A stretch of 62,864 bases of DNA from Gordonia sp. UBA5067 (GTDB lineage Bacteria > Actinomycetota > Actinomycetes > Mycobacteriales > Mycobacteriaceae), in contig NZ_DIAX01000002.1 of the NCBI RefSeq assembly GCF_002414845.1, positions 19,750 through 82,613 on the forward strand, in the 5' to 3' direction. Every line of letters begins with the position of its first letter. Position 1 is the first letter of the stretch. Both the position numbers and the translations under genes were made by a program. The notes under the pieces are model-generated. The model was given only the letters and a program-made list of their open reading frames with translations, did no database searches and had not been told where the DNA came from. Positions 48,178 to 51,493 of the stretch are shown here, one piece after another.

Positions 48178-50175
48178 ATGGTCAACCGACTCGTCGATGC
48201 GACGAGCCCCTACCTGCGTCAGCACGCGGACAATCCCGTCGACTGGTGGGAGTGGTGCCCCCAGGCCTTCGTCGAGGCGGCGCGCCGGGACGTGCCGGTC
48301 CTGCTATCGGTCGGGTATGCGGCCTGCCACTGGTGCCATGTGATGGCCCATGAGACGTTCGACAATCCTGTGCTGGCCGCACAGATGAACGATGGGTTCG
48401 TGTGCATCAAGGTCGACCGCGAGGAGCGCCCCGACATCGACGCGGTCTACCTGGGCGCGACGATCGCGATGACCGGTCAGGGCGGCTGGCCGATGACGTG
48501 CTTCCTGACCGCAGCGGCCGAGCCCTTTTACTGCGGCACCTACTTTCCACCGCGGCCACGGCACGGGCAGCCCGGTTTCGGTGAGTTGTTGACCGCGATT
48601 TCGCAGACGTGGAATGAGCGCCCTGACGAGGTCGGCAGGGTGGCCGAGCAGGTGCGCGGCCAGCTGACCCAGGCGGCTGCCGGATTGCCCGCCGCGACGA
48701 CCTCCGTCGACGCCGGTTTGGCCAGGGTTGCGGTCGCCGCATTGATCGCCGACGAGGATCGCGTCCACGGCGGGCTCGGGCGCGCCCCGAAGTTTCCGCC
48801 GTCGTCGACGATGCTCGCGCTGCTGCGCCACGACGAACGGGTGGGATCGCCGGCGGCGGTCGACGTCGTCGTGCGGGCCGCGGAGGCGATGGCGCGCGGG
48901 GGGATCTACGACCAACTGGCCGGCGGGTTCGCGCGCTACGCCGTCGACGAGGCGTGGGTGGTGCCGCATTTCGAGAAGATGCTGTACGACAACGCGCTGC
49001 TGCTGCGCTGTTACGCGCAACTCGCGCGGCGCGATAGCCAGGGCCTGGCCGGACGGGTGTGTGAGCAGACCGTCGCGTTTCTCGACGAGGCGCTGGGCAC
49101 GCCCGGTGGCGGGTTCGCGTCATCCCTGGATGCGGATGCCGGCGGCGTGGAGGGTGCGACCTATGTGTGGACCCCGGCGCAGCTGATCGACATTCTCGGC
49201 CCCGTCGACGGCGCTTGGGCGGCGGCGGTGTTCGGGGTGACGACGATCGGGACCTTCGAGGCGGGGGAGTCCACCCTGCAGCTTGCGCATGATCCCGACG
49301 ACCCCGAGAGATTCGGCCGGGTGGTCGCCGCGCTGCGCACCGCGCGCGACCGCCGGCCGCAGCCGGCCCGCGATGACAAGGTCGTCACGGTGTGGAATGC
49401 GCTCGCGATCACCGCGCTGGTCGAGGCTGGGGTCGGACTGAACCGGCCCGAGTGGGTGGTGCGGGCCGCTCGCTGTGCCGACGTGCTGCTGGACGGGCAC
49501 CTCGTCGGCGGGGAGGTGCGCCGGGTGTCGCTGAACGGCACCGTCGGCACGCCGGCCGGTATGCTCGACGACCACGCGGCCCTCGTCGTCGCGCTGCTCT
49601 CCCTGTTTTGTGCGACTGGTGAAGATCGCTGGTGTGTAGCGGCAATCGGCGTGCTGGACCGAGCCATCGACAGCTTCGCCGATGTCGCCGAACCCGGCTC
49701 GTGGTTCGATGCACCCGCCGGCGGCGGGCTCATCGTGCGCCCGCGCGACCCGGCTGACGGCGCCACGCCGGCGGGCGCGTCGCTGATGGCCGAGGCCCTG
49801 CTGATGGCGTCGATGCTGTCCGGTCCCGACACCGCCGGTGGGTACGCGGAGTTGGGCGCCCAGACACTGGCGCGCGCGGCGGTGCTGTTGGCGAAGGCGC
49901 CGCGTGCCGCCGGACATTGGCTCGCGGTGGTCGAGGCCCAGCTGGCCGGACCGATGCATGTGACCGCGTCGTCGGCGGCGAAGCTCGCCCTTGCCCGTCG
50001 GCTCGCCCCGGGCTGCGCCGTCGTGACCGCGGCCGCCGCAGTCGGCCTCGCTGCCGATGAGCTTGCCGATCAGCCCGCCGACACCGTTCTCGTCTGCCGG
50101 GGAACGACCTGCTCGCTGCCGTTGGCCGATCCCGACGAGATCCGGCGTGAGTTCGGCAATTTTCGTCCGTCCTAG
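48178..50175 (+). CDS. DUF255 thioredoxin-domain protein (YyaL/Rv1084-like)
   Basis: 665 residues. The N-terminal thioredoxin-like domain has the motif ACHWCHVM in place of CxxC (Cys-His-Trp-Cys), within the family context NRLVDATSPYLRQHADNPVDWW and GQGGWPMTCFLT. It is followed by a long (alpha/alpha)6-type catalytic-like region with FHTVD-like RYAVDEAWVVPHFEKMLYDNALLLR and LDADAGGVEGATYVW. These proteins are sometimes called spermatogenesis-associated 20-like; their substrate is unknown. Orthologue of Rv1084 by position. It ends 56 bp before the aroG leader ORF. Confidence 0.92.
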   Translation: MVNRLVDATSPYLRQHADNPVDWWEWCPQAFVEAARRDVPVLLSVGYAACHWCHVMAHETFDNPVLAAQMNDGFVCIKVDREERPDIDAVYLGATIAMTGQGGWPMTCFLTAAAEPFYCGTYFPPRPRHGQPGFGELLTAISQTWNERPDEVGRVAEQVRGQLTQAAAGLPAATTSVDAGLARVAVAALIADEDRVHGGLGRAPKFPPSSTMLALLRHDERVGSPAAVDVVVRAAEAMARGGIYDQLAGGFARYAVDEAWVVPHFEKMLYDNALLLRCYAQLARRDSQGLAGRVCEQTVAFLDEALGTPGGGFASSLDADAGGVEGATYVWTPAQLIDILGPVDGAWAAAVFGVTTIGTFEAGESTLQLAHDPDDPERFGRVVAALRTARDRRPQPARDDKVVTVWNALAITALVEAGVGLNRPEWVVRAARCADVLLDGHLVGGEVRRVSLNGTVGTPAGMLDDHAALVVALLSLFCATGEDRWCVAAIGVLDRAIDSFADVAEPGSWFDAPAGGGLIVRPRDPADGATPAGASLMAEALLMASMLSGPDTAGGYAELGAQTLARAAVLLAKAPRAAGHWLAVVEAQLAGPMHVTASSAAKLALARRLAPGCAVVTAAAAVGLAADELADQPADTVLVCRGTTCSLPLADPDEIRREFGNFRPS

Positions 50176-50231
50176 GGGTCGGTGTGGCCACGATGTCCTC
50201 AGTTACCCCGACCGGAGATGATTTTGGTACG

Positions 50232-50309
50232 GTGAGCGACGTGAACAACACCGTGCGCGCCTATTGGCGCTTTACCGTGGCTCTGGGTGAGCCCGCGGTG
50301 AAGCGCTAG
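50232..50309 (+). CDS. aromatic leader peptide of aroG
   Basis: 25-codon ORF GTG...TAG upstream of aroG. It contains the run Tyr-Trp-Arg-Phe at 50262-50273 (TAT TGG CGC TTT), with all three aromatic amino acids in four codons. A GTG at 50241 is an alternative start (MNNTVRAYWRF...). A G-rich region (CCGGAGAT) 14-20 bases upstream can serve as ribosome-binding site. It is followed by hairpins and a terminator before aroG, so it appears to be the leader peptide of an attenuator and not a free protein. Confidence 0.8.
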   Translation: MSDVNNTVRAYWRFTVALGEPAVKR

Positions 50310-50330
50310 TTTCGCACGCACGTCCACATC

Positions 50331-50385
50331 CGGAGCCCCAAGCAGCGACCATTTTGGTTGCTGCTTCCTTGTTTTCAGGGCTCCG
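50331..50385 (+). terminator. attenuator terminator hairpin upstream of aroG
   Basis: AAGCAGCGACCA (50340-50351) pairs with TGGTTGCTGCTT (50355-50366) around a 3-base loop, followed by CCTTGTTTT (50367-50375), a good T-rich end. An outer pair CGGAGCCC/GGGCTCCG (50331-50338/50378-50385) may extend it. Alternative pairing: 50279-50285 (GGCTCTG) with 50331-50337, and the earlier hairpin 50274-50299 right after the Phe codon. These are the elements expected for ribosome-controlled attenuation by charged aromatic tRNAs. Confidence 0.78.
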
Positions 50386-50425
50386 ACGCGGGGCCCGAAC
50401 CGGTACCCACGCGAGAGGCAATCAA

Positions 50426-51493
50426 GTGACCACCACCCCCGACCTGCATGCGCACCCGTCGACGTCGGATCGGCGCATCCGGGCATTCCGATCGATCCCG
50501 ACGCCGGACGCGCTGCGCAGCGAACTGCCGTTGACGGCACGCCGGGCCATTGCCGTCTCCCGTGACCGGGAGGAGATCGCCGACATTCTGGCCGGGCGCG
50601 ACGACCGACTGCTCGTCGTCGTCGGGCCGTGCTCAATCCACGATCCGCTTGCCGCGATCGACTACGCGCGGCAGCTCGCGCCGCTGGCCGATGGGTACGC
50701 CGATCGTCTCAAAATCGTCATGCGGGTGTACTTCGAGAAGCCGCGCACCACCATCGGGTGGAAAGGGCTGATCAACGATCCGGGCATGGACGGCACCTTC
50801 GACGTCGAGCGCGGCCTGCGGACCGCCCGGGCACTGCTGCTCGACATCATCGACCTCGGATTGCCCGTCGGTTGCGAGTTCCTCGAGCCGAACAGCCCCC
50901 AGTACATCGCCGACGCGGTGGCCTGGGGTGCCATCGGTGCCCGGACCACCGAGTCGCAGGTGCATCGGCAGCTGGCCTCGGGTTTGTCGATGCCGATCGG
51001 GTTCAAGAACGGTACCGACGGCAACGTCCAGGTCGCCGTCGACGGGGTGAAGGCGGCCGCATCGGAGCACGTGTTCTTCGGACTCGATGATTTCGGCAAC
51101 GGCGTCGTCGTGGAGACGGCGGGCAACAACGACTGCCACGTCATCCTGCGCGGCGGGACCGGCGGGCCGAACTACGACGCCGGCTCCGTCGCCGGCGCGG
51201 CGGGCGTGCTGGGCAAGGCGGGACTGCCGGCGCGGGTGATGATCGACGCCTCGCATGCGAACTCGGGGAAAGACCACCTGCGGCAAGCGGTGGTGGCCAC
51301 GGAGATCGCCGACCTGGTGTCGGCCGGTGCGCCGGTCAGCGGGGTCATGCTGGAGAGCTTCCTCGTCGGCGGAGCGCAGTCGCCGGACGCACAAGACCTC
51401 GTGTACGGCCAGTCGGTCACCGACAAGTGCATGGCCTGGGATGCGACCGAGGAGGTGCTGCACACGCTCGCGGCGGCGGGCACCCACCGCTGA
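50426..51493 (+). CDS. aroG: 3-deoxy-7-phosphoheptulonate synthase, class I (AroG/AroF type)
   Basis: First enzyme of the shikimate pathway, joining PEP and erythrose 4-phosphate. 355 residues from GTG 50426 (VTTTPDLHAHP); extension upstream would read into the leader hairpins. Class I-alpha motifs are VVVGPCSIHDP, VYFEKPRTTIGWKGLINDPGMDG (two blocks), GARTTESQVHRQLASGLS, IGFKNGTDG, and the metal/PEP site segments ILRGGTGGPNYD and IDASHANSGKD. Whether it is inhibited by Tyr or Phe cannot be read here. Expression is likely set by the attenuator upstream. It interrupts the mycobacterial gene order between Rv1084 and hemolysin III. Confidence 0.94.
   Translation: MTTTPDLHAHPSTSDRRIRAFRSIPTPDALRSELPLTARRAIAVSRDREEIADILAGRDDRLLVVVGPCSIHDPLAAIDYARQLAPLADGYADRLKIVMRVYFEKPRTTIGWKGLINDPGMDGTFDVERGLRTARALLLDIIDLGLPVGCEFLEPNSPQYIADAVAWGAIGARTTESQVHRQLASGLSMPIGFKNGTDGNVQVAVDGVKAAASEHVFFGLDDFGNGVVVETAGNNDCHVILRGGTGGPNYDAGSVAGAAGVLGKAGLPARVMIDASHANSGKDHLRQAVVATEIADLVSAGAPVSGVMLESFLVGGAQSPDAQDLVYGQSVTDKCMAWDATEEVLHTLAAAGTHR

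What the first reader, a model, noticed from the sequence alone, without database searches (positions are those of the whole stretch)
50232..50425. Aromatic amino acid attenuator with a Tyr-Trp-Arg-Phe leader peptide before aroG
The sequence shows a 25-codon ORF with TAT TGG CGC TTT, a hairpin starting directly after the Phe codon (50274-50299), and a U-tailed hairpin (50340-50375) before the aroG start. 50279-50285 can alternatively pair with 50331-50337. Established knowledge: ribosome-mediated attenuation couples scarcity of a charged tRNA to read-through. Here one leader reads all three aromatic tRNAs, so starvation for any one could open the pathway's first enzyme. Sensing three products in one leader is the unusual part.
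Basis: partly seen in the sequence, partly recalled or inferred. Interest (0 to 1): 0.72.

Follow-up and report, generated by a model that had tools for sequence, protein, structure and literature searches.

The report
Tyr-Trp-Phe leader-peptide attenuator before aroG
A tiny gene that reads tyrosine, tryptophan and phenylalanine codons sits in front of a bacterial gene for the first step of making these amino acids, and its wide conservation suggests it is a switch that turns the gene up when the cell runs short of them.

Summary
A short ORF with TAT TGG CGC TTT (Y-W-R-F) precedes a type I DAHP synthase (aroG), followed by two hairpins. YWRF is present in 57 of 57 Gordonia genomes examined and in relatives. 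The conserved start is GTG 50241 (22 codons), not 50232. All 126 distinct leaders have TANNNT 6-8 nt before a start, so the leader is probably leaderless. The alternative pairing 50279-50289/50327-50337 and the terminator-like hairpin 50340-50366 both covary.

First, a modelled ribosome at Tyr or Trp frees the switch strand, but one at Phe covers part of it, so 'any of the three' is not supported. Second, the alternative pairing lies beside the terminator stem without overlapping it. What it excludes is an outer stem (50331-50338/50378-50385) around the terminator.

The element shares its switch and hairpin with the Corynebacterium glutamicum aroR-aroF attenuator (Phe-Tyr-Phe), in print since 2013-14. 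It is a new variant of a known kind. Mixed aromatic leaders before DAHP synthase look common, not unusual. How the switch reaches the output is the open point.

The parts
50228..50233 (+). -10 element TACGGT (TANNNT); predicted transcription start at or next to 50241
   Evidence: TANNNT 6-8 nt before an in-frame start in 126 of 126 distinct leaders, 107 of them at exactly 7 nt; background 5.8% per position. Inferred promoter, no transcript data.
50241..50309 (+). leaderless leader ORF, 22 codons, MNNTVRAYWRFTVALGEPAVKR, stop TAG
50262..50273 (+). control codons TAT TGG CGC TTT (Tyr, Trp, Arg, Phe)
   Evidence: YWRF in 111 of 126 distinct leaders; first codon TAT in 123 of 126 and fourth codon TTT in 107 of 126, against TAT 68 of 314 Tyr codons and TTT 53 of 465 Phe codons in 37 long window ORFs
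50263..50310 (+). hairpin 1:2 (5' arm 50263-50283, 3' arm 50289-50310), state without a stalled ribosome
   Evidence: minimum-energy fold; lower stem 79.1% of cells paired in 32 aligned leaders, mostly G-U changes
50279..50289 (+). switch strand 1b, GGCTCTGGGTG, 17 nt after the start of the Tyr codon
   Evidence: 17 nt in 87 of 108 leaders, 20 in 20, 18 in 1
50327..50337 (+). region 3, CATCCGGAGCC, partner of 1b
   Evidence: 1b:3 better than shuffles (z < -2) in 108 of 108; covariation
50340..50366 (+). terminator-like hairpin P4 (12 bp)
   Evidence: 8 of 10 aligned pairs with changes on both sides in 32 leaders
50367..50376 (+). U-rich tract CCTTGTTTTC
   Evidence: sequence
50331..50338 (+). 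5' strand of outer stem 3:5, overlaps region 3
   Evidence: minimum-energy fold; swap test
50378..50385 (+). region 5, GGGCTCCG, 3' strand of outer stem 3:5
   Evidence: own region 3 pairs better than swapped ones in 74 of 108
50389..50396 (+). region 6, CGGGGCCC, alternative partner of region 5
   Evidence: 5 of 200 shuffles as good in the window; but 5:6 is in the best 5% in only 15 of 57 Gordonia
50413..50418 (+). aroG Shine-Dalgarno GAGAGG
   Evidence: sequence
50426..51493 (+). aroG, type I DAHP synthase, 355 aa, start GTG
   Evidence: PF00793, TIGR00034 488.5 bits against cut-off 173.2

Best explanation
This is a ribosome-sensing attenuator of the AroR type. Transcription starts at the leader start codon and a ribosome translates the leaderless 22-codon peptide. 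If Tyr-tRNA and Trp-tRNA are charged, the ribosome passes and leaves, hairpin 1:2 closes, region 3 is free to pair with region 5 around the terminator hairpin P4, and most transcripts end at P4. If the ribosome waits at the Tyr or Trp codon, it holds the base of hairpin 1:2 open, strand 1b pairs with region 3, stem 3:5 cannot form, and aroG is expressed more. Phe starvation should act weakly, because a ribosome at the Phe codon covers part of 1b. Shown here: the leader, its codons, the geometry, and the helices with their covariation. Inferred: the leaderless start, tRNA sensing, and termination at P4 as the output. Not explained: how 1b:3, which does not overlap P4, reduces termination there.
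For: YWRF in 57 of 57 Gordonia genomes examined and 111 of 126 distinct leaders. TANNNT spacing in 126 of 126. 1b:3 better than shuffles in 108 of 108; 1b:3 plus P4 have 11 pairs changed on both sides against 3.1 in shuffles, 0 of 500 as high, in 32 picked leaders. Masking a ribosome at Tyr or Trp flips 1:2 to 1b:3 in the window. The same 1b, region 3 and P4 occur before Corynebacterium aroF, with RFYF leaders. A review reports that the C. glutamicum leader responds to Phe limitation (PMC11802643 passages).
Against: P4 forms on average in every modelled state (0.95, 0.94 and 0.96 for no ribosome, Tyr and Phe, n = 106), and no other segment tested pairs with its arms beyond chance. A ribosome resting at the stop codon would also allow 1b:3 (10.6 pairs in the window), so the off state needs ribosome release. 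Without a ribosome 1b:3 is already favoured in part of the set (mean 0.36), and also in the unmasked fold of the C. glutamicum-type leader L224. The lower stem of 1:2 shows no excess of pairs changed on both sides. The U tract is modest in Gordonia and poor in Dietzia and g47. No transcript data.
Confidence: 0.72

Rival explanations
1. Translational relay. The same leader works through a chain of exclusive helices, 1:2 or 1b:3, then 3:5 or 5:6, then 6 pairing with the Shine-Dalgarno region (7), so that stalling frees translation start of aroG.
For: Outside Gordonia and Dietzia, region 6 pairs with the start region better than 95% of shuffles in 22 of 33 leaders, and both 5:6 and 6:7 do so in 18 of 33. 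3:5 is supported by the swap test.
Against: In Gordonia 9 of 57 pass and in Dietzia 2 of 9, and the window itself fails (190 of 200 shuffles as good). Mean predicted Shine-Dalgarno accessibility does not differ between states (0.51, 0.51, 0.53).
Confidence: 0.15
2. The leader ORF is conserved only because RNA structure constrains it, and no tRNA is sensed.
For: The peptide tail (APGGA, MKR) is encoded by the arms of hairpin 1:2, and the Arg and Phe codons lie in its 5' arm.
Against: TAT and the first two bases of TGG lie outside the stem tested (though mostly paired in the window's own fold) yet are near invariant. Other clades keep aromatic codons in other orders, YFWF or RFYF. The frame is open with a start in 126 of 126.
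Confidence: 0.08
3. P4 is a constitutive partial terminator and regulation is by Rho in the untranslated stretch after the leader stop codon.
For: 1b:3 and P4 do not exclude each other, and the U tract is poor in some clades.
Against: No Rho signal was tested here. P4 covaries strongly, and its tail has a mean of 4 or more T in 8 in Gordonia, Williamsia, Mycobacterium, Tsukamurella and g36.
Confidence: 0.05

Closest known systems
aroR leader of aroF, Corynebacterium glutamicum (Neshat et al. 2014; not held, seen through PMC11802643, PMC7356990 and PMC4046766 passages)
   Same: Upstream of a type I DAHP synthase, aromatic codons shortly before GGCTCCGG, the same 1b:3 pairing, P4 with a U tract, TANNNT box 8 nt before the start (locus L224)
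   Different: Control codons Phe-Tyr-Phe instead of Tyr-Trp-Arg-Phe. By the 14-17 nt spacing rule inferred here the window should read Tyr and Trp. No GGGC(A/T)CCGG region 5 seen by eye in L224.
trp operon attenuator, Escherichia coli (recalled; mechanism summary in PMC1183508 passages)
   Same: Leader peptide, control codons at the base of hairpin 1:2, alternative helix upon stalling
   Different: In trp, region 3 is shared by antiterminator and terminator. Here region 3 lies beside the terminator stem and is shared with an outer stem.
Leaderless poly-cysteine ORFs of mycobacteria (Canestrari 2020; only the title seen, in the reference list of PMC13236596) and S. lividans leader peptides (PMC8079986 passages)
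   Same: Leaderless short ORFs reading the end product in Actinobacteria
   Different: None of the eight S. lividans leaders listed in the passages precedes a DAHP synthase

Membership tests
AroR-type DAHP synthase leader (C. glutamicum aroR-aroF) | Leader ORF with aromatic codons directly upstream of a type I DAHP synthase | tested here: met
AroR-type DAHP synthase leader (C. glutamicum aroR-aroF) | Same switch helix and P4 hairpin as in the Corynebacterium locus | tested here: met
   GGCTC(C/T)GG and CCGGAG plus P4 in the window, L180, L181 and L224, read by eye and in folds
AroR-type DAHP synthase leader (C. glutamicum aroR-aroF) | Expression rises when a cognate aromatic amino acid is limiting | not testable with these tools
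   needs expression data
Classical trp-type transcription attenuator | Leader peptide with control codons for the pathway's product | tested here: met
Classical trp-type transcription attenuator | Intrinsic terminator before the structural gene | tested here: met
   as a sequence feature only; covariation
Classical trp-type transcription attenuator | Antiterminator and terminator share a strand and exclude each other | tested here: not met
   gap 0-2 nt in 100 of 108; mean P4 0.94-0.96 in the three states
Translational attenuator (erm type) | Shine-Dalgarno sequestered when no ribosome stalls | tested here: not met
   window 190 of 200 shuffles as good; in the best 5% in 22 of 33 leaders outside Gordonia and Dietzia
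Rfam riboswitch, T-box or leader family | Match to a curated RNA family | tested here: not met
   no cis-regulatory match at the leader (E up to 10; one chance microRNA match, E 7.8); none at the aroG leader of L033, L035, L201 or L224 at gathering scores

The most novel reading that the evidence does not exclude
The leader is a spacing-coded two-slot sensor. The codons about 17 and 14 nt upstream of strand 1b set which tRNAs are read: Tyr and Trp in YWRF, Tyr and Phe in YFWF, Phe in RFYF. The signal then passes down a relay of exclusive helices whose last step has been swapped in evolution between a transcription terminator (Gordonia, Corynebacterium) and a start-site hairpin (other Mycobacteriales).
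Probability: 0.22. Interest if true: 0.66.

Novelty: new variant of a known kind. Interest (0 to 1): 0.5.

Why it matters
If true, one short leader couples a pathway's common first step to several of its end products, and the identity of the sensed amino acids can be changed by moving codons in steps of three nucleotides. The natural YWRF, YWRFF, YFWF and RFYF leaders make that rule directly testable. It also poses a clear mechanistic question: how a switch helix that does not overlap the terminator stem can control it.

Tried and rejected
A pairing of the leader's link or 1a segment with either arm of P4, which would give a classical antiterminator: mean z between +0.21 and -0.84, z < -2 in 0-4% of 108 leaders; rejected.

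Shine-Dalgarno sequestration in the window: rejected for the window, kept as a possibility for other clades.

A known Rfam element: none at the leader.

An aromatic leader before the type II DAHP synthase: none found in the two loci examined, L212 and L213, of 41 hits.

Codon usage was therefore taken from 37 long GC-rich ORFs of the window only. These were not checked to be genes.

Consensus folding of genus groups with RNAalifold: the variable stretch after P4 misaligns, so 3:5 was tested by duplex energies and swaps, not by columns.

Rows dropped. The 108 leaders are the 126 distinct ones minus 15 without the YWRF-type 1b and region 3 pattern (YFWF leaders, Catellatospora, Kribbella and Amycolatopsis, as listed) minus 3 without a P4 by the simple stem search (L042, L192, L193). 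One search used 106 of the 108, one search used 99. In one search two YFWF leaders (L198, L202) were skipped by failed patterns.

In one search, 127 of 133 distinct leaders passed a threshold of 9 of 11 pairs. Region 3 was picked there as the best match to each leader's own 1b, which favours own partners over shuffled ones, and a few picks (for example two with TGTCAGGGGCT) are probably wrong places. I lean instead.

The phylum pattern search matched 10 of 396 genomes and missed the window itself, because the window's 1b reads GGCTCTGG. It is not a measure of distribution.

The 14-17 nt spacing rule rests on one published response pattern (C. glutamicum) and on footprint assumptions. It is post hoc.

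Full report
What is in the sequence. The ORF is present at 50232-50309 and reads VSDVNNTVRAYWRFTVALGEPAVKR. It is followed by aroG, GTG 50426 to 51493, a type I DAHP synthase (PF00793, 292.9 bits; TIGR00034, 488.5 bits against a cut-off of 173.2). The leader 50232-50426 folds at -100.2 kcal/mol against a mean of -71.3 (sd 4.1) for 200 dinucleotide shuffles, none as good. The minimum-energy fold has hairpin 1:2 at 50263-50310, the P4 hairpin at 50340-50366 and an outer stem 50331-50338/50378-50385 around P4. P4 followed by CCTTGTTTTC is the only terminator-like site in 50100-50500 (shuffle mean 0.3).

Conservation. Upstream regions were examined in 57 Gordonia genomes, the own one included (30, 19, 8), and all 57 carry YWRF (eleven loci had to be turned to the right strand first). 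For other genera of the family, one place per genome was fetched from the capped list (80 places, 8 of them the Gordonia just counted); 51 of the 301 genomes had no match to this aroG. Of 154 labelled actinobacterial loci, 132 (126 distinct) match one of the motif patterns: YWRF 111, YFWF 12, YWRY 1, YWHF 1, YYWF 1. The 22 without a match are four Corynebacterium, seven of genus g41 (three of these were read: YRWRRF, YRWRF and HSWRF), one Dietzia with YWFS, two of genus g45 (not read), one of another family with RWFTYF, and seven named loci such as Arthrobacter (NRWYAYF). The first codon is TAT in 123 of 126 and the fourth TTT in 107 of 126. In 37 long GC-rich window ORFs TAT is 68 of 314 Tyr codons and TTT 53 of 465 Phe codons. 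Low general usage of the regulatory codons is what theory predicts for sensitive attenuators (PMC1183508, passages).

Leaderless start. In 126 of 126 distinct leaders a TANNNT box lies 6-8 nt upstream of an in-frame ATG, GTG or TTG, at exactly 7 nt in 107; the background at arbitrary positions is 5.8%. For the window this gives TACGGT 50228-50233 and start GTG 50241. This is inference, without transcript data.

The switch. Strand 1b (50279-50289) pairs with region 3 (50327-50337). The pairing is better than shuffles (z < -2) in 108 of 108 leaders (how 126 became 108 is told under Tried and rejected). On an alignment of 32 leaders that I picked for diversity (A1), helices 1b:3 and P4 together have 96.1% of cells paired, 11 pairs changed on both sides (shuffles 3.1) and a covariation score of 0.216 (shuffles 0.096), with 0 of 500 shuffles reaching any of the five measures; slid versions pair 36-48% of cells. 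Eight of the ten P4 pairs and three of the eleven 1b:3 pairs change on both sides. The lower stem of 1:2 is 79.1% paired (shuffles 76.6), with mainly G-U changes, and its number of pairs changed on both sides does not exceed shuffles (2 against 2.2); it is the weaker helix. Swap tests: own 1b is better than 1b of other leaders in 90 of 108 and in 12 of 16 groups (worse in the two Mycobacterium groups and in the single Streptomyces and Isoptericola leaders), and own region 3 fits region 5 better in 74 of 108 and in 13 of 16 groups (worse in Tsukamurella, g47 and a two-member Mycobacterium group). These tests do not correct for relatedness.

Which codons can work. The Tyr codon starts 17 nt before 1b in 87 of 108 leaders, 20 nt in 20 (the YWRFF class) and 18 nt in one. 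With the ribosome masked to 10, 12 or 15 nt past the first base of its A-site codon, the mean number of 1b:3 pairs in 88 YWRF leaders is 11.0, 11.0, 11.0 at Tyr; 11.0, 11.0, 9.0 at Trp; 7.9, 5.6, 1.7 at Phe; and 5.3 without a ribosome. In the window these are 11, 11, 11; 11, 11, 9; 7.8, 4.9, 2.9; and 0.0. In YWRFF leaders (n = 20) the first Phe does better: 10.2, 8.2, 5.2. So Tyr and Trp are well placed and Phe is marginal. A ribosome at the stop codon also allows 1b:3 (10.6 pairs in the window), which speaks against a simple copy of the trp scheme.

The known relative. A genome found by a primer sequence of the C. glutamicum aroR region (1 of 201 genomes of that genus, exact match) has the leader MFAARFYFMSGSGAFPRQLAVSRAT with the same 1b, region 3 and P4 followed by TTTTTTGTTT. 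Its aroF start differs in a few bases from the published primer, so it is C. glutamicum or a close relative. A review states that the AroR leader contains Phe-Tyr-Phe and that transcription rises on Phe limitation but is not affected by Tyr (PMC11802643, passages); an RNA-seq study listed the aroF leader in 2013 (PMC4046766, passages). In that leader the first Phe lies 15 nt and the Tyr 12 nt before 1b, which fits the spacing rule, but post hoc. In its fold 1b:3 and P4 form even without a masked ribosome, so the same output puzzle exists there. Neshat et al. 2014 itself is not held.

The output problem. Region 3 ends 0-2 nt before P4 in 100 of 108 leaders. Mean formation of P4 is 0.95 with no ribosome, 0.94 at Tyr and 0.96 at Phe (n = 106; L043 and L172 are exceptions with P4 near zero in some or all states), and nothing tested upstream pairs with its arms beyond chance. 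So 1b:3 (0.36, 0.85, 0.08) excludes the outer stem 3:5 (0.39, 0.10, 0.49), not the terminator core. Mean Shine-Dalgarno accessibility is the same in all states (0.51, 0.51, 0.53). Outside Gordonia and Dietzia a further helix pairs region 6 with the aroG start region better than 95% of shuffles in 22 of 33 leaders, against 9 of 57 in Gordonia and 2 of 9 in Dietzia (9 of 108 dropped for lack of a start or short spacing). The window fails this test (190 of 200 as good). For the window, termination at P4 is therefore the likelier output, by analogy with C. glutamicum, but how the switch acts on it is unexplained.

Is sensing three products unusual? Among 74 named DAHP-synthase loci (L038-L111 of the 80 kept, Actinobacteria included), 49 have an aromatic-rich frame within 450 nt upstream and 41 have all of Phe, Trp and Tyr in the cluster. 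Some of these are chance hits, since the search took the best of all frames and had no control. Searches of the held library listed no paper whose title, abstract start or opened passages describe a Tyr-Trp-Phe leader before DAHP synthase outside Corynebacterium; most listed papers were not opened. The 2005 survey of Actinobacteria reports no conserved structures for other amino acid pathways (PMC1262725, part 1 of 3 read). Subscription papers are mostly not held, so this is weak evidence of novelty.

Verdict. A real, well-conserved leader attenuator by its anatomy; of the aroR type, with a different codon set. A new variant of a known kind, with a testable spacing rule and an open question about its output.

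Noticed in passing
L038-L111: Type I DAHP synthases of many Proteobacteria and other phyla have aromatic-rich short frames upstream (for example Xanthomonas FYFWYYGF, Bradyrhizobium SYFWYFSY); 49 of 74 loci, 41 with all three aromatics.
   Followed up: partly
L201:360-570: A cobalamin riboswitch (RF00174, 83.7 bits) lies close to the aroG leader, on the opposite strand, in a genome of genus g29 whose leader resembles those of named Rhodococcus loci.
   Followed up: no
window 48178-50172: The gene just upstream of the leader is a DUF255/thioredoxin-like (Thioredox_DsbH) protein of 665 aa.
   Followed up: no
G000:C76:19402-20685: A second DAHP synthase, type II (PF01474), is present in this genome and in all 41 Gordonia genomes searched.
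   Followed up: partly
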